Assembly (NCBI GenBank): GCA_025457885.1
Contig: JALOTN010000010.1
Location: 1-37,396, forward strand
Length of the DNA: 37,396 nt
Direction of reading: 5' to 3'
Source of the DNA: Thermoplasmatota archaeon
GTDB taxonomy: Archaea; Thermoplasmatota; E2; DHVEG-1
Below are positions 1-18,818 of the stretch, piece by piece. The position numbers and the translations under genes are program-made. Every line of letters begins with the position of its first letter. Position 1 is the first letter of the stretch. The notes below the pieces were generated by a model. It worked only from the letters and a program-made list of their open reading frames with translations, did not search any database and was not told the origin of the DNA.

Positions 1-2
1 AA

Positions 3-539
3 GGTATTACTCATACGGTCCTTATAGAAGTGAAGAATTGGAAATGCTATAACTATATTACACCTGATACCTTTAGAAAGAAGATATTACATCGTTTTCA
101 ACGGGTGGATACATCCAGGGAATATCCATGGGCATTAGCAATGAATATTCGGAATATACCTTTAATTGAATCCCGTTGTAGACGGCATCGTATCCATATT
201 TTACCCATGACTCATCATATTACACAAGAATCTATTGGTAATGATGATGTTTTACGTGAGTTGTTTAGTTCGTTCATAGATGCATTTTGCACATATATCA
301 CTGATGCTGTCCCAGAAGATGTGTATCCCTACCTTGCTGTTGAAAATCAAGGAAAAGATACGACTATTGGGATTATTCAGGATTTGTTCTTGGGTGTGCC
401 TTATGATGTTATTACTCTAAGATATGATGTGTCTGTTGATTATGTTAGGCGGTTGGCATCAGAATTAAGGGGTGCTGGTGCCTATCTACCTGATAGAAGG
501 GAAGAAGGATGGGTGGTTCAGCGGGCAATACAGGAATAG
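3..539 (+). CDS. PD-(D/E)XK nuclease-like protein with C-terminal HTH, 5' end missing
   Basis: The reading frame stays open to the left edge, so the GTG at 30 is probably internal and the gene starts outside the window. The residues before it read ..HTVLIEVKNW. An E-x-K after a hydrophobic strand is the core motif of the PD-(D/E)XK nuclease fold, as in restriction enzymes and Holliday-junction resolvases. The last 60 residues (GVPYDVITLRYDVSVDYVRRLASEL) look like a helix-turn-helix of the resolvase or sigma-region-4 kind. It lies inside the element integrated at tRNA-Arg, so a DNA-processing role in that element is plausible. The upstream catalytic Asp is not visible, so the nuclease call is tentative. 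Confidence 0.45.
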   Translation, partial: GITHTVLIEVKNWKCYNYITPDTFRKKILHRFQRVDTSREYPWALAMNIRNIPLIESRCRRHRIHILPMTHHITQESIGNDDVLRELFSSFIDAFCTYITDAVPEDVYPYLAVENQGKDTTIGIIQDLFLGVPYDVITLRYDVSVDYVRRLASELRGAGAYLPDRREEGWVVQRAIQE

Positions 540-734
540 AGGTTAGGGGGCAGGGTAAAGATATACAGTATAGGGGATATGTAGCTGTATGATTAGATGC
601 TTATGATACTAAACACATCAAAGGAGAAATATCTTACCTTTACCGTTACAAGATGCACACGGCACTAAGTTGTGTTTCTAGGGGTCTTTTTATTTAAGAA
701 CAGGATATGCTTTCTATAATTACACTGAAGCTGA
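540..734. other. Intergenic stretch with a T-rich putative terminator
   Basis: No coding region is seen. Around 686-698 a run of T follows a GGGG step, consistent with a transcription stop for the gene ending at 539. The stretch is AT-rich and belongs to the presumed integrated element. Confidence 0.3.
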
Positions 735-743
735 TTTTATATA
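735..743 (+). promoter_or_regulatory. TATA box of the integrase fragment gene
   Basis: The sequence TTTTATATA is centred about 27 bases upstream of the ATG at 766. This is the spacing expected for a leaderless archaeal transcript beginning at or next to the start codon, and no Shine-Dalgarno sequence is seen. Confidence 0.45.
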
Positions 744-765
744 CAATCTGTGAGTATGCATACGT

Positions 766-1035
766 ATGATGAAGAAACACTTGAATCTACTGATTGAGGC
801 TGGTTTATTACAAAAAGCAAGAGACAATGGACTGGTTATAAGTAAGTTTCTTGAGCTAAAATTACAGGAGTATTTCCAGTTTATTGATGCTGTGAGCAAG
901 TCTAGTAATCAACATCAGAAAAGAAGAGCGGACCTGTCGGGATTTGAACCCGAGTCAGAGGCTCCGGAGGCCTCTGTGATATCCAAGCTACACTACAGGC
1001 CCATGGACACAGCGGCTAATCCGCAGAAGAATTAA
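766..1035 (+). CDS. SSV-type integrase N-terminal fragment (IntN) running into tRNA-Arg
   Basis: The first 45 residues (KKHLNLLIEAGLLQKARDNG, then LVISKFLELKLQEYF) look like a ribbon-helix-helix segment of the kind found at the N-terminus of euryarchaeal tRNA-targeting integrases. After residue 53 the frame is the antisense of the tRNA-Arg gene and reads RADLSGFEPESEAPEAS. The SSV1 integrase carries a comparable PPGFEPG peptide because its attP lies inside the gene. The catalytic tyrosine-recombinase domain is absent, so the protein is an inactive remnant or is completed only when the element excises. The start is chosen from the TATA box 27 bases upstream; a second ATG follows directly. Confidence 0.6.
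   Translation: MMKKHLNLLIEAGLLQKARDNGLVISKFLELKLQEYFQFIDAVSKSSNQHQKRRADLSGFEPESEAPEASVISKLHYRPMDTAANPQKN
929..1002 (-). tRNA. tRNA-Arg(CCG)
   Basis: It folds as a 74-nt cloverleaf on the minus strand. The acceptor GGGCCTG pairs with CAGGTCC (one G-T pair) and has discriminator G. The D arm has three good pairs. The anticodon stem GAGGC/GCCTC encloses loop CTCCGGA, giving anticodon CCG. The T arm is TCGGG-TTCAAAT-CCCGA. CCA is not encoded and there is no intron. The 3' half is also the attachment site of the element to the left; tRNA-Arg(CCG) is the classical target of SSV1 in Sulfolobus. A TATA-like CTATTAATT (about 1033-1041) lies some 30-38 bases upstream of its 5' end. Confidence 0.93.
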
Positions 1036-3036: not shown

Positions 3037-3217
3037 ACTGGAATAGACTTATCCCTTAAATTCTTTTTGAATGCCAATAGAATGAAGAAAATAAGATAAA
3101 ATCCTCTGGTAGCCTCAAAGGAGTTGATAGTATTTTTAACTTAGGAGAAGATTTATAATCTGTAGTGTGAAATTTAATAGAACATTGTAGATTTAGGGAT
3201 TTTCAACAATTAATAAC

Positions 3218-3259
3218 GTTCTTATAGAAGAAAGGTGTTTAGAAAATAAACAATGGGGG
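3218..3259 (+). promoter_or_regulatory. Conserved promoter/leader of a secreted-protein gene (copy 1)
   Basis: The block begins GTTCTTATAGAAGAA, which contains a TATA-like CTTATAG, continues AT-rich, and ends in a GGGGG ribosome binding site 6 bases before the ATG at 3266. The same block in the same order occurs before the secreted-protein gene at 10025 (9975-10019). The distance from motif start to start codon is 48 and 50 bases respectively. Two such long, similarly spaced leaders suggest shared control or descent by copying. Confidence 0.5.
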
Positions 3260-3265
3260 AAAGCA

Positions 3266-4465
3266 ATGGATAGAAATCCTCTCAGTAAAAAATGTTTGGT
3301 GGTTGGATTTATCCTTTTGTTCGTAAGTGTCTTTTTTGCACCAAGTATCAATTCCACTATTGTCATTGCATCTAATGACAACGATCAGGTTCAAAACTCA
3401 GGTTTTTCAGGTTCCATAGTTATTAACAAATCTCTCTGTTATCTCTTCTCTCTAGGAAAAAAGTCGGATTCCATTGTTTGGAACAATTATGGATATAGCT
3501 ATGATTCTAACGCTCTCGCCTCACAGTTGGATTCTGTATATCCGCTCAATTGTCAAGTGGCTGATGATTTTTTGTTAGAGAATGATTGTCAAGTGACTGG
3601 CGTGCATTGGTGGGGTGTATTTTTTGGTGGTGATCCACCATGGCCAAATCCTTGTGATTTTAACATCATCTTCTACGCAGATGATGGGACAGGGAACAGG
3701 CCCACAGGAGTAGGTATGGAGGACCCAACCTCGACTGCACTAGCAGTGTATTTCATACCTCAAGTGAATGGGAGTCTCGTTGGTTCTTCTAATAGTTGGT
3801 TCGAATATGATGTTGTCTTACCTTCAGGGTTCACTGCTATGGCGAATACCAAGTATTGGATTGCAATACAAGCGGTATTTCCTATCTTTCCACAATGGGG
3901 TTGGGGGACAAATGGCCCTAATCCTGATCAGCTCCATGAGCCTGTGCAAGGATTCCCCTTGTTAGGTGTCCCGTATTGGACTATTGCGGGCTATGGTGAC
4001 ATGGCGTTCTATCTTTTTGGATACCATGTACCGCAGAAGGCTGATTTGGATTGTAGGGGGTCACTTGCCTGGTCTGATGTTAAACCAGGTGTAACAATCA
4101 CTGGAAACTTCCAGATTATGAACGTCGGAGAGCCAGACTCGCTGCTGAACTGGACCATAGCCTCGTTTCCTGACTGGGGCACCTGGACGTTCTCCCCCGC
4201 TTCAGGCATGAATCTTATTCCTCAAAATGGACCGGTAACGGTGAATGTCAGTGTCATCGCCCCCGACATTAAAGACAACGCATTCCAAGGTCAAGTCATC
4301 ATCGTCAACTCAGACAATGCCAGTGACTTCTATAAAATCCCTGTCAGCCTCATGACACCGTTCAACACAGGTATTATGCATGACGGATTTATGGCAATGC
4401 TATTGATAAGGTTCTCATATGCCTTTTCTGCCCTCAGACAATTCCTCCAACATGTTACATTATAG
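3266..4465 (+). CDS. Secreted beta-sandwich protein with Ig-like module and C-terminal tail
   Basis: The protein has 399 residues. Residues 1-36 form a signal peptide with the local VGFILLFV core (KKCLVVGFILLFVSVFFAPS). Residues 75-250 are an aromatic-rich beta domain (VADDFLLENDCQVTGVHWWG, then FNIIFYADDGTGNRPTG, then YWIAIQAVFP) resembling jelly-roll domains of bacterial and archaeal secreted proteins. Residues 255-365 are an Ig-like module (LDCRGSLAWSDVKPGVTITG, then WGTWTFSPASGMNLIP) also found in the protein at 16401. The end, VSLMTP plus about 32 residues containing LLIRFSYAFSALRQFLQ, fits the tail shared with three other secreted proteins here. No catalytic motif is seen. The function is unknown, probably surface binding. 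The GGGGG ribosome binding site supports the start. Confidence 0.75.
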   Translation: MDRNPLSKKCLVVGFILLFVSVFFAPSINSTIVIASNDNDQVQNSGFSGSIVINKSLCYLFSLGKKSDSIVWNNYGYSYDSNALASQLDSVYPLNCQVADDFLLENDCQVTGVHWWGVFFGGDPPWPNPCDFNIIFYADDGTGNRPTGVGMEDPTSTALAVYFIPQVNGSLVGSSNSWFEYDVVLPSGFTAMANTKYWIAIQAVFPIFPQWGWGTNGPNPDQLHEPVQGFPLLGVPYWTIAGYGDMAFYLFGYHVPQKADLDCRGSLAWSDVKPGVTITGNFQIMNVGEPDSLLNWTIASFPDWGTWTFSPASGMNLIPQNGPVTVNVSVIAPDIKDNAFQGQVIIVNSDNASDFYKIPVSLMTPFNTGIMHDGFMAMLLIRFSYAFSALRQFLQHVTL

Positions 4466-4532
4466 AAAAATTAAGATGTAACGAAAAACAAAAGAAGAAA
4501 ATAAAAATAGTAAAATCCTGAAGGATGCAATC

Positions 4533-6128
4533 ATGTCAAAGCGACAAAACATAGCATTCATCGTCTTATGCCTCGTCTTCCTGCTCAATGTCAACGCTGC
4601 ATATGCCATCACCCCTAAGGAGCAATCCACTGCTGAACTCCCACCTAGCGACGACACCTATATTAGTAGCAACTCGCCGAACCAGATTTTCGGTTTTTCC
4701 TCACGAGTTGGGTTGCGGAATGGAAGCGATATTAATTACGACATCCGTACCCTTATACAATTCAACCTTTCAGATATTCCAATTGGCACTCAAATCCACT
4801 ATGCTCATATCTATCTTTACTTCTACTTCTACAACCCTGATCACGGTAGTCCTGCTGGTAGGCCTTATACCGTCTACCGTCTCACCGAACCCTGGAACGA
4901 AGAGACCGTCTGCTGGAACAACCAGCCTAACAGTACTGCAGTTGCCACGGACTACGCCTACTGTCCGAACGAAACCGGCCAGTGGATTGATTGGAATGTC
5001 ACCAGCGACGTCCAAGCTTTTCTCAATGGGACCTTTGAAAACTATGGGTGGATCATCGCCGATGAGACCTCTGGGACGGGCGAGCTCCCTTACGCTGTTT
5101 TCCTTTCCAAAGAAGATGAAATCAACCACCCGTACCTCCTCGTTGACGTCGACATCAATTTTCCCCCCTTACCAGCTAGCAACCCCTACCCGGAAGACGG
5201 CCACCTGGATCTCCCAGGTAACACTGATATCTCCTGGGTCGGCAACGATCCTAATGTCGGGGAAAACCTCACCTTCGACGTCTACTTCGGTAATACATCT
5301 CCACCACCACTGTTGAGTAATAACCAATCCGCAACTACCTACGACCTTCCAAGGCTACATTCCTACTGCTATTACTACTGGAGGATTGACACCTGGGATA
5401 GTCATGGTGAATTCGCAGAAGGATTCCAGTGGCATTTCAGAACCAATCCAAACAAAGCTCCTAGTATACCAGAATACCCAAGTCCAGCCTTGGGAGCCGC
5501 CAACGTCAACCTGACACCCATCCTCGCTTGGTCAGCTTGTACAGATTGGGATGGAGACCCTGTTCTTTATGATGTCTATCTCGGTACGACAACACCTCCA
5601 CCACTCGTCAGTATTAATCAAACCCAAACGACCTTCCGCTCAGCGCCACTCTCATGCGCAACCAAGTACTATTGGAGAATCATTGCTCATGATGATTATG
5701 GTGGTTACACGAAAGGATCCCTCTGGTTTTTTACTACCATTGTGAACCACTTCCCAAATGTCCCCGTGATCAGTGGCCCGATCCAAGGCGAAATAGAGAT
5801 ACTGTATAACTATACCGCCGTTGCCACCGATTCTGAGAACCAGAGTCTCTCATACGAAGTTGACTGGGGAGACGGCATCGTCGACCCGTGGTATGGCCCG
5901 ATCCCCTCCGGCACCGTAATGAATTGTTCGCATGAATGGCTGCTGCAAGGCTCGTTTACGATAAAAGTCCGCGTCAAGGATACTGCGGGCGCTATCAGTG
6001 ACTGGGGGTATCTGACCGTAACAATGCCTTTTTCGTATCAACCACCGCATTTCCGTTTAATCAAGTGGTTGTTGGAACGATTCCCCGATGCATTCCCGAT
6101 ACTCCGATCGCTGCTGGATCTCAACTGA
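4533..6128 (+). CDS. Secreted DNRLRE-domain protein with Fn3-like and PKD-like repeats
   Basis: The protein has 531 residues: a signal peptide (1-25, ending NAAYA); a DNRLRE domain (about 37-205: DTYISSNSPNQIFGFSS, LIQFNLSDIP, LTEPWNEETVCWNNQPNS), a carbohydrate-binding-like sandwich; two Fn3-like repeats (about 212-308 and 309-405), each with an NPYPEDG/YPSPALG entry, FDVYFGNTSPPPL/YDVYLGTTTPPPL and a YYWRI core; and a PKD-like domain (about 408-495: YEVDWGDGIVDPWYGP, HEWLLQGSFTIKVRVKD). It ends VTMP plus a tail with LIKWLLERFPDAFPILRSLL, the clearest copy of the shared C-terminal motif. It lies 67 bases after the previous gene and may be co-transcribed. It is likely a cell-surface or extracellular polymer-binding protein; no catalytic domain is seen. 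Confidence 0.8.
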   Translation: MSKRQNIAFIVLCLVFLLNVNAAYAITPKEQSTAELPPSDDTYISSNSPNQIFGFSSRVGLRNGSDINYDIRTLIQFNLSDIPIGTQIHYAHIYLYFYFYNPDHGSPAGRPYTVYRLTEPWNEETVCWNNQPNSTAVATDYAYCPNETGQWIDWNVTSDVQAFLNGTFENYGWIIADETSGTGELPYAVFLSKEDEINHPYLLVDVDINFPPLPASNPYPEDGHLDLPGNTDISWVGNDPNVGENLTFDVYFGNTSPPPLLSNNQSATTYDLPRLHSYCYYYWRIDTWDSHGEFAEGFQWHFRTNPNKAPSIPEYPSPALGAANVNLTPILAWSACTDWDGDPVLYDVYLGTTTPPPLVSINQTQTTFRSAPLSCATKYYWRIIAHDDYGGYTKGSLWFFTTIVNHFPNVPVISGPIQGEIEILYNYTAVATDSENQSLSYEVDWGDGIVDPWYGPIPSGTVMNCSHEWLLQGSFTIKVRVKDTAGAISDWGYLTVTMPFSYQPPHFRLIKWLLERFPDAFPILRSLLDLN

Positions 6129-6406
6129 CCGTTAATCGTTGTCGTACCGGTAAACTAGGGTTCAAATCCATTCCCCCGCAGTTTTTTATTTTTTTTATCA
6201 ATTAAATAATAAATAGAAAAACTATAATGATTAGTATTCCTAAATCATTTTCCAACTTCCAAAATGAGCGATAAAAAAAAAAATAATAAAATTATAATCT
6301 TAGGGTCAAATCATACCAAATCTTTATAAAATACTCGCTATTCCCCTTCTTGTACCAGAGAGTTATAAAACTACTCCAGTAGAAGAATGTTTAGGAGAAA
6401 AGAATC
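6129..6406. other. Intergenic: tRNA-like remnant, T-run terminator and rps6e promoter region
   Basis: After the DNRLRE gene stops there is a tRNA-Leu-like 3' fragment (6155-6181), then T-rich runs at 6182-6199 that can end transcription. Two TATA-like sequences follow, TTTATAAA at 6323-6330 and TTATAAAA at 6363-6370, either of which could drive rps6e. A Shine-Dalgarno AGGAGA lies at 6393-6398. Confidence 0.45.
6155..6181 (+). repeat. tRNA-Leu-like 3' end remnant (possible attachment scar)
   Basis: The sequence TAGGGTTCAAATCC followed by ATTCCCCCGCA matches the T-loop and the acceptor end CCCCCGC plus discriminator A expected of an archaeal tRNA-Leu. The T stem is degenerate and no 5' half with GCGGGGG is present upstream. 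Archaeal integrative elements leave such 3' tRNA fragments at one border. It directly follows the secreted-protein genes at 3266-6128. Confidence 0.35.
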
Positions 6407-8501: not shown

Positions 8502-8616
8502 GTCGGGGTGGCTCAGCTTGGCCAGAGCGCCTGACTCATAAGCTCAGCTCAAAGGTTCGTTTTGCAGCTAACGCTAAGATATCTGGAGGTCGCGGGTTCA
8601 AATCCCGCCCCCGACA
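8502..8616 (+). tRNA. tRNA-Met(CAT), elongator type, with intron
   Basis: The acceptor GTCGGGG pairs perfectly with CCCCGAC and has discriminator A. The D stem is GCTC/GAGC and the T arm is GCGGG-TTCAAAT-CCCGC. The anticodon CAT is at 8537-8539. An intron of about 40 nt (roughly 8541-8580) interrupts the gene at the canonical position 37/38 and contains its own AGCT..AGCT stem. The anticodon stem CCTGA/TCTGG has one T-T mismatch (29:41). CCA is not encoded. The G1-C72 pair excludes most initiators; a tRNA-Ile with modified CAT is the other possibility but fits less well. Its 3' end is the core of the repeats that follow. Confidence 0.88.
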
Positions 8617-8682
8617 CCTTATTTATATACTCAACAGGAGAAAAAACAACCCTTTTTTCATGACTGCACTCTGAACCCGCAA
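8607..8682 (+). repeat. Left-end direct repeat, copy A (starts in tRNA-Met 3' end)
   Basis: This 76-base sequence begins with the last 10 bases of the tRNA-Met gene (core GCCCCCGACACCTT) and continues through TCAACAGGAG, a CCCTTTTTTC step and CTGAACCCGCAA. It recurs at 9731-9807 with one substitution and one extra A. Confidence 0.85.
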
Positions 8683-8718
8683 TGAAACAAAATATCGGAT
8701 GTTTAGAAATTTAACCGA

Positions 8719-8777
8719 TACCGATATATATCTACAATGACATATCGGTACAGTATGAAATACGACGATACCGATAT
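8719..8777 (+). promoter_or_regulatory. TACCGATAT operator repeats around the fic promoter and start
   Basis: TACCGATAT occurs at 8719-8727 and 8769-8777, and its exact inverse ATATCGGTA at 8742-8750; a partial copy ATATCGG is at 8692-8698. The first copy runs into the TATA box (GATATATATC, 8723-8732), the second lies in the transcript start region, and the third is inside the reading frame. Such placement suggests a repressor that blocks TBP or RNA polymerase, perhaps the Fic protein itself through its C-terminal HTH-like part. Confidence 0.55.
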
Positions 8778-9672
8778 TCTCATTAATGATTCCTTACTAC
8801 AAAAAATAGACGAAAAAAAGCATCGATTAGATAGCCTCAGACCTCTTCCAAAAGATGCTGTACAAAAACTCCTTGAAGACCTGCGACTTCGACATACCTA
8901 TCACTCTGATGCTATCGAAGGCAACACACTCACGCTCCAAGAAACCAAGCTCGTGATAGAGGAAGGAATCACCATTGGAGGCAAACCACTCAAAGACCAT
9001 ATCGAAGCACGAAACGATGCAGAGGCATTTGATTTCATGGTACACCTTGTTCAACAAAAGACACCGCTCTCCCCGGAAGTCATTCAACAAATTCATGATA
9101 TCGTTACTAGAGGTCTTCTGAAGGATGCCGGAAAGTACCGAACAGGAAACGTGAGAATCACAGGTTCCTCAATAACTCCACCAAGTTATACAAAAATCAT
9201 ATCCCTCATGGACGATTACATAAAAAATAGTAAAGCACTTCATTCTTATCCATTGAAAAAAGCTGCATACATCCACCATCGACTGGTATGGATCCATCCT
9301 TTCTTCGATGGAAACGGCCGAGTCGCTCGATTAGTGACCAACCTCTTTTTCATGCAACAGGGATATCCTCCGATCGTACTGAAACAAGACCAACGGAAAA
9401 CCTACTATCACGTGCTCCATCAATCAGACAAGGGACATCTATCACCTCTTGCCGAGTTTATCGCAAAAGCTATGAACGAATCACTTCAGCTCTATATCTC
9501 CGTGTTCATCGATGAAGACCATCTAATACCGCTAAAAGAGCTTGCAAAACAGGCCCCCTACTCTCAGGAATACCTTAGCCTACGAGCCAGACAAGGAAAA
9601 CTCGATGCTATCAAACTCGAACAAACATGGTACTCATCACGTAGAGCCCTAAAAGAATATATGAAAAAATGA
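8755..9672 (+). CDS. Fic-domain protein (AMP/nucleotidyl-transferase) with N-terminal inhibitory motif
   Basis: The Fic active-site loop HPFFDGNGRVAR is intact, so transfer of AMP or another nucleotide to a target hydroxyl is expected. The N-terminal segment HSDAIEGN matches the inhibitory (S/T)xxxE(G/N) helix, making this an autoinhibited class II Fic protein in which the Glu blocks the ATP site. The last 50 residues (LIPLKELAKQAPYSQEYLSL, WYSSRRALKEYM) resemble a winged-HTH or MerR-like DNA-binding segment. ATG 8755 is preferred because the TATA box at about 8727 would start transcription near 8753; an in-frame ATG at 8737 adds six residues but lies too close to that TATA. It is the only cargo of repeat unit 1. 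Confidence 0.9.
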   Translation: MKYDDTDILINDSLLQKIDEKKHRLDSLRPLPKDAVQKLLEDLRLRHTYHSDAIEGNTLTLQETKLVIEEGITIGGKPLKDHIEARNDAEAFDFMVHLVQQKTPLSPEVIQQIHDIVTRGLLKDAGKYRTGNVRITGSSITPPSYTKIISLMDDYIKNSKALHSYPLKKAAYIHHRLVWIHPFFDGNGRVARLVTNLFFMQQGYPPIVLKQDQRKTYYHVLHQSDKGHLSPLAEFIAKAMNESLQLYISVFIDEDHLIPLKELAKQAPYSQEYLSLRARQGKLDAIKLEQTWYSSRRALKEYMKK

Positions 9673-9699
9673 AGTCTCATGAAAAACATCTATTATTTA

Positions 9700-9744
9700 G
9701 TGGGAACTGTAACCCCGGGGGACTAAGTCTGCCCCCGACACCTT
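9700..9744 (+). repeat. Right-end sequence plus core, copy 1
   Basis: GTGGGAACTGTAACCCC is followed by GGGG, ten variable bases and the core GCCCCCGACACCTT. The same 45-base layout, with identical spacing, recurs at 13006-13050. The core equals the 3' end of tRNA-Met. Confidence 0.75.
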
Positions 9745-9807
9745 ATTTATATATTCAACAGGAGAAAAAAACAACCCTTTTTTCATGACTGCACTCTGAA
9801 CCCGCAA
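9731..9807 (+). repeat. Left-end direct repeat, copy B
   Basis: This 77-base near-identical copy of 8607-8682 differs by one C/T change and one extra A in the A-run. It starts at the core that ends the first right-end sequence, so one copy closes unit 1 and opens unit 2. A further TGAACCCGCAA follows at about 9820-9831. Confidence 0.85.
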
Positions 9808-9974
9808 AAAGCATAGACATTGAACCCGCAAAATAATGACAAAAAAGTTAGATCAATCTCGACTAATGAAATAATTCATACTCTATTCCATTCATCCAAT
9901 GGTTATTAGAATTATTTCGAAATGAGTTCACATTGCTCAGATGTCTAGTTGAGTTTAATTCAAAGGGAAATAAT
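9808..9974. other. Non-coding stretch after left-end copy B
   Basis: With the flanking repeats, 9673-10024 holds no gene. It contains the right- and left-end repeats, a second TGAACCCGCAA, and AT-rich sequence with no recognisable structure up to the conserved leader at 9975. Confidence 0.4.
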
Positions 9975-10019
9975 GTTCTTATAGGAGAACCTGCATTTAA
10001 AATATTGATAAAGGGGGAA
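9975..10019 (+). promoter_or_regulatory. Conserved promoter/leader of a secreted-protein gene (copy 2)
   Basis: It starts GTTCTTATAGGAGAA, continues with an ATTTAAAATATT stretch and ends GGGGGAAA just before the TTG start at 10025. It aligns with 3218-3259, including spacing and the GGGGG ribosome binding site. Confidence 0.5.
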
Positions 10020-10024
10020 AATCA

Positions 10025-11173
10025 TTGAAACAAAAATGGTTCGTAATAGGAATAATCCTTTTATTCGTTGGATCTGGTTTTATATCAACTTCTGCACAAA
10101 ATTTTGAAAAAATATCCCCAACATCAAGAGGAAATTGGTTGTATGTCGGTGGTACTGGTCCAGGGAATTATTCCAGGATCCAGGATGCGATTAACGAGTC
10201 ACAGGACGGAGATACCGTGTTTGTCTTTGATGATTCAGCACCCTATTATGAAAGTCTCATTATCAACAAATCTATTACTCTTATGGGGGAAAATAAGGAG
10301 ACAACAATCATTGATGGCACTGGGTTAACAGCAGAAGCAATGATTAAGGTAACTGCAATAACAGTCACCATTACAGGGTTCTGCTTTCAAAATTGTCAAA
10401 GTAATATCACGTATTGGACAGTGTATATTAGAAACAGTTTAGGTGAGCAACATCATATAACACAGAACATCTTCCGGAATAATAATAATAACGCCCTGTA
10501 TTTTATCGCAATGTATTCAGATATCTCAAATAATACATTCTATAATAATTCCGCTGCGCTCTTATTAGATTATGGTGGGAATCACACCGTGGAACATAAC
10601 GTGTTTTTGAATAACGATGAAAGTATTGGTCTGTATGAATGTCATTGGAACACTATCCATGGGAATAAGATTGCTAATTCTAGTATCCCTTTGTTAATTT
10701 TTATGTCTCATTACAACAACTTTTCTGAAAATATCCTCGATGGAAATAATCATGGCGGGCTCGATTCTATAGCTTCAAGTAAAAACATCTTCTATCGCAA
10801 CATATTTTCAAATAATCAGTATGGGATGACGTTGACAGCTTCACAGGGGAATACTATTATGGAGAATAATTTTATCAATAATTCAGATTACCAGGTGATT
10901 AGTATCTCTCACCCGCTTGTCGGGGTTGGTCTTTCATTATACTATCATCGCCAATATGTAAGGAATGGAAGTTTTTTCTCTCTTCTTGGAAGGAATAAAT
11001 GGGAGGCGAACTATTGGAGTGATTGGAACTCATCGTCACCAAGACCAATTGATCGAGTGATCTATTTTTGGAGTCTTCGTTTGTTAACTAGGATTACAGG
11101 GACGCCCTATCCCATCCGTCTTCCCCAATACGACTGGCACCCTGCACAAGACCCCTATGATATTAGGGGATGA
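10025..11173 (+). CDS. Secreted right-handed beta-helix (NosD/pectate-lyase-like) protein
   Basis: The 382-residue protein starts at TTG with a GGGGG ribosome binding site 7-11 bases upstream. Residues 1-25 are a signal peptide of the local type (KWFVIGIILLFVG, ending STSAQ). LYVGGTGPGNYSRIQDAIN and DGDTVFVFDD then open a parallel beta-helix whose coils are marked by repeated N-rich turns (FRNNNNNALY, NTFYNNSAALLLD, NVFLNNDESIGLY, NIFSNNQYGMTL, NNFINNSDYQ). The NosD/PbH1 fold often binds or cleaves polysaccharide, but no catalytic residues can be assigned. It is first in a three-gene operon; the next gene starts 4 bases after its stop. The shared C-terminal tail is absent. Confidence 0.8.
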   Translation: MKQKWFVIGIILLFVGSGFISTSAQNFEKISPTSRGNWLYVGGTGPGNYSRIQDAINESQDGDTVFVFDDSAPYYESLIINKSITLMGENKETTIIDGTGLTAEAMIKVTAITVTITGFCFQNCQSNITYWTVYIRNSLGEQHHITQNIFRNNNNNALYFIAMYSDISNNTFYNNSAALLLDYGGNHTVEHNVFLNNDESIGLYECHWNTIHGNKIANSSIPLLIFMSHYNNFSENILDGNNHGGLDSIASSKNIFYRNIFSNNQYGMTLTASQGNTIMENNFINNSDYQVISISHPLVGVGLSLYYHRQYVRNGSFFSLLGRNKWEANYWSDWNSSSPRPIDRVIYFWSLRLLTRITGTPYPIRLPQYDWHPAQDPYDIRG

Positions 11174-11176
11174 TCA

Positions 11177-11986
11177 ATGAAACGGAAATGGTTGGCGGTT
11201 GGAATCATTCTCTTGTTCGTTGGATTTTCCGTATCATCCATCGTCAATGCGAGCACTGTTGATAATGAATTATTAAAAATCAAGCATAATTCGCAGGAGA
11301 ATTTAGTTAAGGTTAATTGTTATGAATTTAAATCTGACGGAAGCATTGAAAAAACCACGATATTGCTTCCAAAGAGTGCCCATTTCCAGATGAGACAGGC
11401 TCTTTCGTTGACCACGTCTCTTGAGAAGAAACTCGAAGTCTATAAGAAATATGGTATTGTGCCATCGGATGCTAGCATTCAGAATATTAAGGAAAATTAT
11501 AATCAGTATCTTAGTGCGAAAAAAATCAATATTCCCGCTATTCCAAAATTGATGAGCAGTCATGAGATTATTCAACCTTCTGGTATCATGGTAAATAATC
11601 ATTGTGAGATCGCAGCAGTCGTTGGTCTTGGTATCAATGTGAATTTGGGGATGAGTGCATGGACGCAATGGTGGAATGGCTTCTGGGCTATGATTATTGA
11701 TGCATTGGATCTCTATTTAGATCCCCCGTATTCATTTTTTATACCCGGTATTGATTTGTATGGTTTCAGTATCTGCATGAGAACATTTGGTTGGACCTGG
11801 AATGGGACGTTATCAGATACTCAGTGGGATTTTGGATATGGGACGATGCTCTTGTTAGGTTTTATTGGATATTATGTAGAAGAATTTCCTTTACCTCTTG
11901 TTCTTTTCATTGGAGAATATGTCGGGTATACCGTCTCTGTTATGGCTGCTGGTCTGATGACGGTTGATGACCTCCTCTCGAATTAA
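11177..11986 (+). CDS. Secreted protein of unknown function, paralogue of 12008
   Basis: The 269-residue protein has a signal peptide of the VGIILLFVG type ending VNAS. Residues 30-115 match the next gene product in layout: V-x-C/T, then GSIEKTTILLPKSAHFQMRQ, a coiled helical stretch and YGIVPSDASIQNIKENYNQYL. The C-terminal half is hydrophobic and aromatic (WTQWWNGFWAMIIDALDLYL, FGWTWNGTLSDTQWDFGYG) and could insert in or lie on the membrane. I do not recognise the family; similar proteins seem to be lineage-specific to Thermoplasmata. It lies 21 bases before 12008, so it is operonic. Confidence 0.65.
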   Translation: MKRKWLAVGIILLFVGFSVSSIVNASTVDNELLKIKHNSQENLVKVNCYEFKSDGSIEKTTILLPKSAHFQMRQALSLTTSLEKKLEVYKKYGIVPSDASIQNIKENYNQYLSAKKINIPAIPKLMSSHEIIQPSGIMVNNHCEIAAVVGLGINVNLGMSAWTQWWNGFWAMIIDALDLYLDPPYSFFIPGIDLYGFSICMRTFGWTWNGTLSDTQWDFGYGTMLLLGFIGYYVEEFPLPLVLFIGEYVGYTVSVMAAGLMTVDDLLSN

Positions 11987-12007
11987 CTTGTAAGATTAGG
12001 AAATCAT

Positions 12008-12886
12008 ATGATAAAGAAATGTTTGATTGTTGGAATCATTCTCTTGTTCATTGATGTGATCATAGCACCAACTATCAACTTTCACACTGTGAAAGCATCC
12101 ATTGATGATGACCTGGTGGAAGTCACCACCCAAGCCTGTGGTATTAAAGGATTTGGGAATACCACGGTGAAACTCACCAGAGAACAATACCAGGACCTGG
12201 AGGAGTATCTGGTTGAGTTCAGAGCAAGGTTAAATAAAACTACAACAATGAAGGAAACTATTTCTCTTTTCAAGGAGGTTGTATTTGTATTAGATGATTA
12301 CAAGGTATTACCAGAAGGAATGAGCATTCAACAATGTATTGACTTGGTGACCGGGAAATACCTACTTAGAACACATATTCAGATTCCTCGGATGTTAATG
12401 GGGGAAATGGAAAATTATCTCTGTCTCATCGTAGGGCGAGGAAACCCCCTTGACCGTTATTTCTTTGTGGATGTGATGTGGGGAATCCTTTGGGAACTTG
12501 GGAATTTCGATATTGCATTTATATTATTGATTCCTGTCTTACTTATTACACTTATAATGATTCCAATATGGTTATATCCATTGAAATTAAATTCGTTTCT
12601 TTATTATGGGACAAGACAATACAATATGTATGAAGGATCTTCATATACACCGGCTGGCAAATGGGTCTGGACAAACGGCATGAACGGAATAAAGAATTGG
12701 GATGGTCCATTTTGGGGAAATATCAAATTAATTGAGTTTCAAACTGGTGTCGGGGGGGATATTATATCGACTTATGGCAGTTTAGGGGCGACTAATTTCA
12801 TAGGTCTTAAAATCGATTTATTAAATTTTTATTTGGGGGCAGTATCATGGATATCCTTATCTTATGAATATCCTTGGTCCACTTAA
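12008..12886 (+). CDS. Secreted/membrane protein of unknown function, paralogue of 11177
   Basis: The 292-residue protein has a signal peptide (KKCLIVGIILLFIDVIIAPT, ending TVKAS) nearly identical in pattern to that of the protein at 3266. The N-terminal domain (GFGNTTVKLTREQYQDLEEY, then YKVLPEGMSIQQCIDLVTGKYL) aligns with 11177. Residues 175-195 form a strong membrane segment (IAFILLIPVLLITLIMIPIW). The C-terminal 100 residues are Gly/Asn/Trp-rich (GKWVWTNGMNGIKNWDGPFWG), resembling an Ig-like or lectin-like surface domain. The function is unknown. It is last in the operon of unit 2 and is followed by the right-end repeat. Confidence 0.65.
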   Translation: MIKKCLIVGIILLFIDVIIAPTINFHTVKASIDDDLVEVTTQACGIKGFGNTTVKLTREQYQDLEEYLVEFRARLNKTTTMKETISLFKEVVFVLDDYKVLPEGMSIQQCIDLVTGKYLLRTHIQIPRMLMGEMENYLCLIVGRGNPLDRYFFVDVMWGILWELGNFDIAFILLIPVLLITLIMIPIWLYPLKLNSFLYYGTRQYNMYEGSSYTPAGKWVWTNGMNGIKNWDGPFWGNIKLIEFQTGVGGDIISTYGSLGATNFIGLKIDLLNFYLGAVSWISLSYEYPWST

Positions 12887-13005
12887 TCAAAGAAAATATA
12901 TCCATCTGAAATTGTCGAAATGAATTCTGAGGAAAACAGTTCTTAGAAGAAATAAACGTTTTATTGATATGTTGGTATCTTCCCGATTTTACATTATTTT
13001 TTTTG
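12887..13005. other. Intergenic with an orphan leader-like sequence
   Basis: The sequence CAGTTCTTAGAAGAAATAAACG at about 12937-12958 resembles the GTTCTTATAGAAGAA leader motif seen before the secreted-protein genes at 3266 and 10025, but no gene follows it; the right-end repeat begins at 13006. It may be what is left of a lost cargo gene's promoter. Confidence 0.3.
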
Positions 13006-13050
13006 GTGGGAACTGTAACCCCAGGGGTACGTTCCCGCCCCCGACACCTT
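13006..13050 (+). repeat. Right-end sequence plus core, copy 2 (palindromic)
   Basis: It has the same 17-base start and spacing as 9700-9744 and ends CCCGCCCCCGACACCTT, 17 bases identical to the tRNA-Met 3' end. In this copy the right end is an imperfect palindrome: GGGAAC (13008-13013) pairs with GTTCCC (13031-13036), and GTAACCCC pairs with GGGGTAC around a single A. Confidence 0.75.
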
Positions 13051-18230: not shown

Positions 18231-18818
18231 ATGCTGCAGGATTCACCGACTGAGAAGTTGACGACCGCGGTGTTTGGGTTCGCCCTCGCCGTTGGTGCGT
18301 TGTCTTTGACAAAGGCTAACCCTGAGACTATTATGGATGTTGTCGGGAGCCTGGTGTTGTTTAGTCTGAGTTTCATCATCCTGGTGGTGATCTGGTGGGG
18401 GACCAGTGAGATCATGTCAAAAATCAACCAGAGCAAACCGGTCACTGTTCTGTTGAATATTGTGTTGTTGTTTTTTGTCGCAATTGAGCCGTATCTGTTG
18501 AATATCTTGAATGCAAACGTGGCTCTGTTTCCATTGTCTTCGACGTTGTATGCGATGGATATGGCGTTCTTGATGGGGGTGTCCGCTGCGTTAAGTCAAA
18601 TCCTCCTGAAGGAAAATAAAACGACATTAACGCCTCAGCAACTCAGATATTTTAGAATCGGGAGAAATAATCAATTTATTTGTTCCTGTCTTTTTTTCCT
18701 TTCTTGTTTGCCATGGTTTCTCGATTGGACTATAGGTGGGTTGAATGTGCGAGTCCTCATCTGGTTTGTTACCTTGGCATTCACACTAATTATTTCGTCT
18801 CGGAAAAGATATTTATAA
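18231..18818 (+). CDS. TMEM175/DUF1211-like membrane protein
   Basis: The 195-residue protein has five to six hydrophobic segments. The first helix (KLTTAVFGFALAVGALSLTK) is in the position of the TMEM175 selectivity helix (RxxxFSDGVFAIAITLL) but has only a loose match, and SLVLFSLSFIILVVIWWGTS matches the later family helix. TMEM175 proteins are K+ channels; here the FSD triad is FGF, so channel function is doubtful. The start has GGTGAG just upstream. It lies 96 bases after the arylsulfotransferase-like gene, beyond a T-rich stop at about 18171-18181, so it is probably a separate transcript. Confidence 0.55.
   Translation: MLQDSPTEKLTTAVFGFALAVGALSLTKANPETIMDVVGSLVLFSLSFIILVVIWWGTSEIMSKINQSKPVTVLLNIVLLFFVAIEPYLLNILNANVALFPLSSTLYAMDMAFLMGVSAALSQILLKENKTTLTPQQLRYFRIGRNNQFICSCLFFLSCLPWFLDWTIGGLNVRVLIWFVTLAFTLIISSRKRYL

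What the first reader, a model, noticed from the sequence alone, without database searches (positions are those of the whole stretch)
8502..13050. Cassette-like tandem units behind tRNA-Met, each with the same left and right ends
The tRNA-Met 3' end (core GCCCCCGACACCTT) occurs three times: in the tRNA (8607), at 9731 and at 13037. A 76/77-base left sequence follows the first two copies with one substitution and one indel between them. A right sequence beginning GTGGGAACTGTAACCCC precedes the second and third copies, in both cases exactly 31 bases before the core. This gives tRNA - [left..Fic..right] - core - [left..three secreted genes..right] - core - chromosome. It is the pattern of two related elements inserted one after the other at a tRNA attB, or of a cassette array. 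No recombinase is inside either unit, so mobilisation in trans would be needed.
Basis: partly seen in the sequence, partly recalled or inferred. Interest (0 to 1): 0.8.

Follow-up and report, generated by a model that had tools for sequence, protein, structure and literature searches.

The report
tRNA-anchored mobile gene cassette arrays
In this family of uncultured archaea, small gene packets without their own recombinase are stacked one behind another at the tail of tRNA genes, each ending in a copy of that tRNA tail, so the tRNA tail seems to serve as the docking site of an integron-like gene-swapping system; the window holds one two-packet example behind tRNA-Met.

Summary
The repeats are real. 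The tRNA-Met (8502-8616, with intron) 3' end occurs three times (8607, 9731, 13037; 0.15 expected). The same left end follows copies 1-2; the same right box lies exactly 31 bases before copies 2-3. They are not a local duplication: the 4.4 kb is absent at this tRNA in congeners, each of which (where sequence is held) has different genes there, one with an array of about five cassettes. The right box recurs in 7 of 9 genomes of the genus, up to 8 times.

This is one case of a family-wide system. Units of about 0.5-5 kb (median 1.4 kb, 1.7 genes), without a recombinase, sit behind tRNA-Leu, -Ser and -Met and end in tRNA-3'-end-like boxes. All 34 boxes counted downstream of such tRNAs lie on the tRNA's strand, whatever the strand of the genes. 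In the Leu/Ser type a cassette-borne half-site is fused at the T-loop TTCAAAT to the host tRNA's own 3' sequence, the signature of site-specific tyrosine-recombinase insertion. Homologous cassettes occur at different places in different species.

The recombinase is not identified. No attC motif, no clear Cas1. Closest known: 'additive' genomic islands at tRNAs. It works like an integron but is not one: a new variant of a known kind.

The parts
8502..8616 (+). tRNA-Met(CAT) gene with intron; host tRNA (attB) of the array
   Evidence: ARAGORN intron mode, Rfam RF00005
8607..8620 (+). core copy 1 (tRNA 3' end plus 4 nt)
8617..8682 (+). left end of cassette 1
   Evidence: 66/67-b match to 9741-9807; related block behind tRNA-Met in G004, G005, G006
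8737..9672 (+). cargo gene of cassette 1: Fic-domain protein, 311 aa, catalytic motif HPFFDGNGRVAR present
   Evidence: Pfam Fic; PADLOC SoFic/PDC-S04 models; 80-85% relatives in other genera
9700..9730 (+). right box (type A) of cassette 1
9731..9744 (+). core copy 2
9741..9807 (+). left end of cassette 2
10025..11173 (+). cargo of cassette 2: secreted beta-helix (NosD-like) protein, 382 aa
   Evidence: Pfam NosD/Beta_helix; homologues in many other cassettes
11177..11986 (+). cargo of cassette 2: 269-aa protein, signal-like N terminus, no Pfam family
12008..12886 (+). cargo of cassette 2: 292-aa protein; homologue in a tRNA-Leu-type cassette of G008
   Evidence: 38% identity to L203:9568-10512
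13006..13036 (+). right box (type A) of cassette 2
13037..13050 (+). core copy 3 (displaced tRNA 3' end), border to the chromosome
6144..6180 (+). separate Leu-type hybrid box (GTACCGGTAAACTAGGGTTCAAATCCATTCCCCCGCA) of the same system, inside the insertion 3165-6325

Best explanation
The region is a two-cassette array of recombinase-less gene cassettes inserted site-specifically at the 3' end of tRNA-Met, one local case of a cassette system spread over this archaeal family. Each cassette has a left end and a right box. Insertion joins an incoming (probably circular) cassette to the tRNA 3' end or to a box already behind it. The cassette supplies a new tRNA 3' end, so the tRNA stays intact, and the old 3' end is pushed to the far side of the cassette and marks its right border. 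Repeated insertion gives tRNA-[cassette]-core-[cassette]-core. Shown from sequence: the repeats, their orientation rule, the variable content at the same tRNA, homologous cassettes at different places, and (Leu/Ser type) the host-tRNA-specific 3' half of the boxes. Inferred: insertion by a tyrosine recombinase acting in trans, encoded elsewhere in the genome or on a visiting element; crossover in the T-loop for the Leu/Ser type, and in or near the acceptor 3' end for the Met type seen here.
For: Three cores, two boxes, two left ends. Different content behind tRNA-Met in congeners, with a five-cassette array in G006. Right box in 7 of 9 genus genomes, up to 8 copies. Arrays behind tRNA-Leu(taa, caa, gag) and tRNA-Ser(cga). 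Hybrid half-site in 26 genomes, all of the same family, 0 of 20 outside, reversed control 0. Box 3' halves copy the host tRNA: 9 of 19 at >=10/12 against 1.8 for random tRNAs, maximum 7 in 5000 draws. Cassette right ends conserved over ~65 nt between cassettes with different genes. 34 of 34 downstream boxes on the tRNA strand while cargo genes lie on both strands, 45 against 34. Homologous cassettes in different contexts; Fic 80-85% identical in other genera, one with a D box downstream. Tyrosine recombinases in 8 of 9 genomes, often beside tRNAs.
Against: No recombinase is tied to the A box or to the arrays; one MAG (G003) has no PF00589 hit at all. No empty site within the same species, no circular junctions. 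In the Met type only ~14 bases are shared with the tRNA, so the crossover is not localised, and the two A boxes of the window differ between the right box and the core. Met arrays also contain B, C and D boxes, which implies more than one specificity or promiscuous recombination. About half of the 19 hybrid boxes do not match the nearest tRNA well. Genomes are MAGs of different species.
Confidence: 0.76

Rival explanations
1. Remnants of ordinary tRNA-integrated elements (plasmids, proviruses, genomic islands) that carried their own integrase, inserted in tandem and then lost it by deletion; the small units are leftovers rather than purpose-built cassettes.
For: Tyrosine recombinases beside tRNA genes are common here; tandem integration and integrase loss after integration are described for archaea (PMC8371274).
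Against: Gene-bearing units are uniformly small (median 1.4 kb) and none of those in the genus contains a recombinase by position; both ends are intact and conserved between units with different genes; closely similar units recur at other loci and in other species as whole units. Independent decay should leave ragged units.
Confidence: 0.14
2. A true integron (attC cassettes and IntI) in archaea.
For: Array layout, one- to two-gene cassettes, recombination site at the cassette end; integrons are reported in archaeal MAGs (PMC9668308).
Against: 0 of 74 sites have RYYYAAC..GTTRRRY at attC spacing; the sites carry tRNA tails; ten tested recombinases score best with archaeal XerA, far below the integron-integrase cut-off; gene orientation is mixed.
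Confidence: 0.02
3. Insertion by a Cas1 (casposon-like) or serine recombinase rather than a tyrosine recombinase.
For: Casposases can use tRNA 3' ends and make ~14-bp target duplications (own knowledge); the window's core is 14 bp; serine resolvase-family genes are present in all nine genomes.
Against: Cas1 (PF01867) exceeds its cut-off in none of the nine genomes and has no hit in G000, G006 or G008; no inverted repeat joins the left end to the right box; the near-invariant overlap TTCAAAT with differing arms in the Leu/Ser type fits tyrosine-type exchange.
Confidence: 0.05
4. Local duplication of the tRNA tail, or RNA-level signals (tRNA-like processing sites) between genes.
For: The core is an exact piece of the tRNA and could be copied locally.
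Against: Boxes contain a conserved non-tRNA half, recur at unrelated loci and in other species, and keep the strand of the upstream tRNA even where the genes point the other way; Rfam finds no RNA at the boxes.
Confidence: 0.03

Closest known systems
Additive flexible genomic islands at tRNA genes (Alteromonas fGI1, PMC4119200; 'Ca. Methylopumilus' fGI-2 with repeats of the last 20 nt of tRNA-Lys, PMC10872708; 'Ca. Actinomarinales' fGI1, PMC7771536)
   Same: tRNA as repeated insertion target for gene cassettes; partial tRNA repeat at the end of inserted cassettes; variable length and content between relatives
   Different: Described in bacteria, with cassettes up to tens of kb. Here: archaea, mostly one- to three-gene units, a conserved cassette half-site shared by arrays at several different tRNAs, a junction mapped to the T-loop, and several box types mixed in one array
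Integrons, including archaeal ones (PMC9668308)
   Same: Works alike: arrays of small cassettes, each with a recombination site at its end, moved as units, no recombinase in the cassette
   Different: No attC, no IntI found, tRNA gene as platform instead of attI, several platforms per genome, cargo genes in either orientation
tRNA-integrated genomic islands and archaeal integrative elements (Islander, PMC4383910; archaeal tyrosine recombinases, PMC8371274; Haloquadratum GI3, PMC3119063)
   Same: Target tRNA regenerated by the element, displaced fragment marks the far end
   Different: Those elements are usually large and encode the integrase; here the units are small, lack it and are stacked
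Tycheposons (as described in PMC10872708)
   Same: tRNA-bounded cargo elements tied to a tyrosine recombinase
   Different: 4-200 kb with a recombinase gene; here about 0.5-5 kb without one

Membership tests
Additive tRNA cassette island | tRNA gene at the edge and repeats of its 3' end between inserted units | tested here: met
Additive tRNA cassette island | same location, variable unit content between relatives | tested here: met
   tRNA-Met and tRNA-Leu loci differ between species; strains of one species not available
Integron | attC sites (RYYYAAC .. GTTRRRY) | tested here: not met
   0 of 74 sites; random windows 0.25%
Integron | IntI integrase with attI | tested here: not met
   ten tested recombinases far below the integron-integrase cut-off; not all recombinases tested
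Integron | cassettes mobile as units | tested here: inconclusive
   homologous units in different contexts, but no excision shown
tRNA-integrated element with own tyrosine integrase | integrase gene inside the element | tested here: not met
   no PF00589 hit in the units of genus genomes by position
tRNA-integrated element with own tyrosine integrase | tRNA regenerated and displaced 3' fragment at the far end | tested here: met
Casposon | Cas1 and terminal inverted repeats | tested here: not met
Tycheposon | tyrosine recombinase in the element, 4-200 kb | tested here: not met
   definition
Trans-mobilised cassette system | a recombinase that acts on these boxes | not testable with these tools
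   candidates only: XerA-like integrases beside tRNA-Ser (G008:C81, G006:C30) and a truncated one next to B boxes (G002:C85)

The most novel reading that the evidence does not exclude
A distinct archaeal cassette system analogous to integrons: many recombinase-less cassettes of one to a few genes carry a conserved half-site that recombines, through the near-invariant T-loop overlap TTCAAAT, with many different tRNA genes, so that several tRNAs of one genome act as parallel capture platforms for a shared cassette pool, mobilised by recombinases in trans.
Probability: 0.45. Interest if true: 0.85.

Novelty: new variant of a known kind. Interest (0 to 1): 0.64.

Why it matters
It would explain how uncultured archaea of this Thermoplasmata lineage (relatives of SM1-50 and UBA33) gain and exchange small sets of genes, such as secreted beta-helix proteins, peptidases, transporters and a Fic enzyme, and it would add an archaeal, tRNA-based counterpart to integrons. 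Because a cassette end is half tRNA and half conserved half-site, simple sequence scans can census cassettes across genomes, and the question of what moves integrase-less gene cassettes behind tRNAs becomes testable with a defined DNA substrate.

Tried and rejected
IMG/VR scans: the A box gave three chance hits inside genes, B and D sites none, so no viral carrier was found. The tRNA-Ser-type integrase as the general recombinase: rejected, present in only 7 of 51 genomes. Integron: rejected. Cas1: no hit over the cut-off. RNA signal: rejected. Native-flank argument for the third core: the sequence after 13050 resembles the tRNA-Met flank of G002, but 17 of 300 shuffles score as well, so it is not used as proof. 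Exact breakpoints from pairwise cassette alignments were blurred by divergence; only the right end of the L062/L065 cassette clearly stops at the box. A first host-match test gave a weak signal because hosts were wrongly assigned and was replaced. The insertion at 3165-6325 was considered as a further tRNA cassette, but it is not at a tRNA and its box lies about 150 b inside, so it is kept apart.
Full report
1. The observation. The three core copies, the two right boxes at a fixed distance of 31 bases and the two left ends are in the sequence as described, far above shuffled expectation (0.15 and 0.07 matches). The tRNA is a real intron-containing tRNA-Met. The right box occurs nowhere else in the 2.07 Mb genome at up to two mismatches. 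The units hold a Fic gene, and a NosD-like beta-helix gene plus two unnamed proteins with signal-like N termini. No recombinase is inside.

2. The same place in relatives. The window is a whole contig of a MAG of a Thermoplasmata genus whose named members include SM1-50 and UBA33. Behind the same tRNA-Met the congeners whose downstream sequence is held carry other genes. G006 has a chain of about five gene-bearing cassettes: NosD-papain-type peptidase, ABC-transporter pair, a small lipoprotein-like gene, a beta-lactamase-family protein, DUF1801. The left-end block follows tRNA-Met in G004, G005 and G006 above all shuffles (weaker in G001) and is not found there in G002, G003 or the other genera examined, including the complete chromosome CP070724.1, where no downstream copy of the tRNA-Met end was found in the stretch held. 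So the 4.4 kb is not a fixed chromosomal segment. Limits: these are different species, not strains, and the G003 and G007 contigs end soon after the tRNA.

3. The right box is a genus-wide repeat. Allowing two mismatches it occurs in 7 of the 9 genomes of the genus, up to eight times in G006; the reversed control pattern gives 0-1 hits per genus genome. These A boxes share GRGGGAACTGTAACCCC..GTTCCCGCCCCCGACA or decayed versions of it.

4. A wider system. Other junctions carry boxes made from other tRNA tails: B (tRNA-Leu), C (tRNA-Ser gct-like) and D (palindrome AGAGATTTGAAC-N5-GTTYAARTCTCT followed by TCCCCTGCA). Site B occurs 14, 42 and 36 times in G000, G006 and G008 (true tRNAs included), control 0. 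Arrays start at real tRNA-Leu(taa), (caa), (gag) and tRNA-Ser(cga) genes. The hybrid motif TTACCGGTAAWYTGGNGTTCAAATC occurs in 26 of 51 genomes, all 26 among the 31 of the same family and none among the 20 outside it, control 0.

5. How the boxes are built. In the Leu/Ser type the 5' half (about 65 nt ending in ACCGGTAAYCTGGG) is cassette-borne and conserved among cassettes with different genes. The 3' half, from the T-loop TTCAAAT on, copies the host tRNA, including host-specific variants (Leu gag TCGTCCCCTGCA, Leu taa CCTTCTCCTGCA, Ser cga TCCTCCCCAGCG). Of 19 hybrid boxes with an upstream same-strand tRNA, 9 match it at 10/12 or better; random tRNAs give 1.8 on average and at most 7 in 5000 draws. 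This places the exchange in the T-loop and is what tyrosine-recombinase insertion into a tRNA gene leaves behind (the regenerated target and the displaced fragment, PMC4383910). For the Met type of the window only the last 14 or so bases are shared, so the exchange lies in or near the acceptor 3' end; the T-loop result is not transferred to it.

6. Orientation and size. Within 8 kb downstream of candidate host tRNAs 34 boxes lie on the tRNA's strand and none on the other; upstream the counts are 2 and 3. Genes between boxes are on both strands (45 same, 34 opposite). The 47 gene-bearing units tabulated have a median of 1424 bp and 1.7 ORFs (boxes were chosen by hand from the maps). The boxes therefore belong to the insertion process, not to transcription.

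7. Mobility. Homologous cassettes stand in different contexts: the ABC pair in G006 and G008 (89%), the G001 cassette directly behind tRNA-Met that lies on another contig of G006 (89%), and others at 78-87%. The window's Fic has 80-85% identical relatives in two other genera, one with a D box downstream, and no comparable full-length relative in the congeners. NosD-like genes are frequent cargo, and a NosD plus 292-aa-like gene pair sits in a tRNA-Leu-type cassette of G008.

8. Recombinase. PF00589 is found in 8 of 9 genomes, often beside tRNA genes, and the ten tested resemble archaeal XerA rather than IntI. None is tied to the A box. Cas1 exceeds its cut-off in none; serine resolvases are present in all. 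Mobilisation in trans by a tyrosine recombinase is the best reading but is inferred.

9. Known or new. tRNAs as targets for stacked cassettes are described in bacteria as additive flexible genomic islands (PMC4119200, PMC10872708, PMC7771536). Archaeal integrons are described (PMC9668308) but use attC, which is absent here. No paper describing this arrangement in these archaea turned up in the library searched; subscription literature was not searched. Verdict: the finding is real and its interpretation supported; it is a new variant of a known kind that works like an integron without being one.

Noticed in passing
window 3165-6325: Two secreted-protein genes plus a Leu-type hybrid box are an insertion upstream of the rps6e-like gene, absent in G001-G005 (empty site TTAAGGAGAAGATTTATAA^AATACT, short direct repeat TTTATAA); it is not at a tRNA and the box lies about 150 b inside the right end.
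   Followed up: partly
window 1-928 and G000:C68:4731-5768: tRNA-Arg(ccg) at 928-1002 marks a break in synteny: in relatives the next region lies on own contig C68, which starts with a tyrosine recombinase, so a separate integrase-bearing insertion behind tRNA-Arg is likely.
   Followed up: partly
window 18231-18818: A 195-aa membrane protein is 76% identical to a gene next to a box in G006:C138 (L202:8728-9372); the stretch 13-24.5 kb may hold further acquired units, since congeners rejoin the conserved gene order at different points.
   Followed up: no
L219:5398-6866, L218:6707-8181: XerA-like integrase plus a 181-aa partner of unknown family, directly behind tRNA-Ser(gct) and tRNA-Ser(gga), the tRNAs resembling box types C and S; 44% and 33% identical between G008 and G006.
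   Followed up: partly
L217:9871-11252: A truncated integrase (catalytic part only) sits beside two B boxes in G002:C85, the only recombinase found inside or beside such an array.
   Followed up: no
L371:6787, L372:6655, L384:5251: Hybrid half-sites whose 3' half is not a tRNA tail but a shared sequence TCGTATTGTCTGATG; possibly the free cassette form or another target.
   Followed up: no
L052:4046-4136, L052:8550-8649, L065:259-355, L065:3181-3387: Pairs of different box types only 80-126 b apart with no gene between, like empty mini-cassettes.
   Followed up: no
window 8674-8682, 9799-9807, 9823-9832: The short sequence TGAACCCGCAA recurs at the end of both left ends and once more just after the second.
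   Followed up: no
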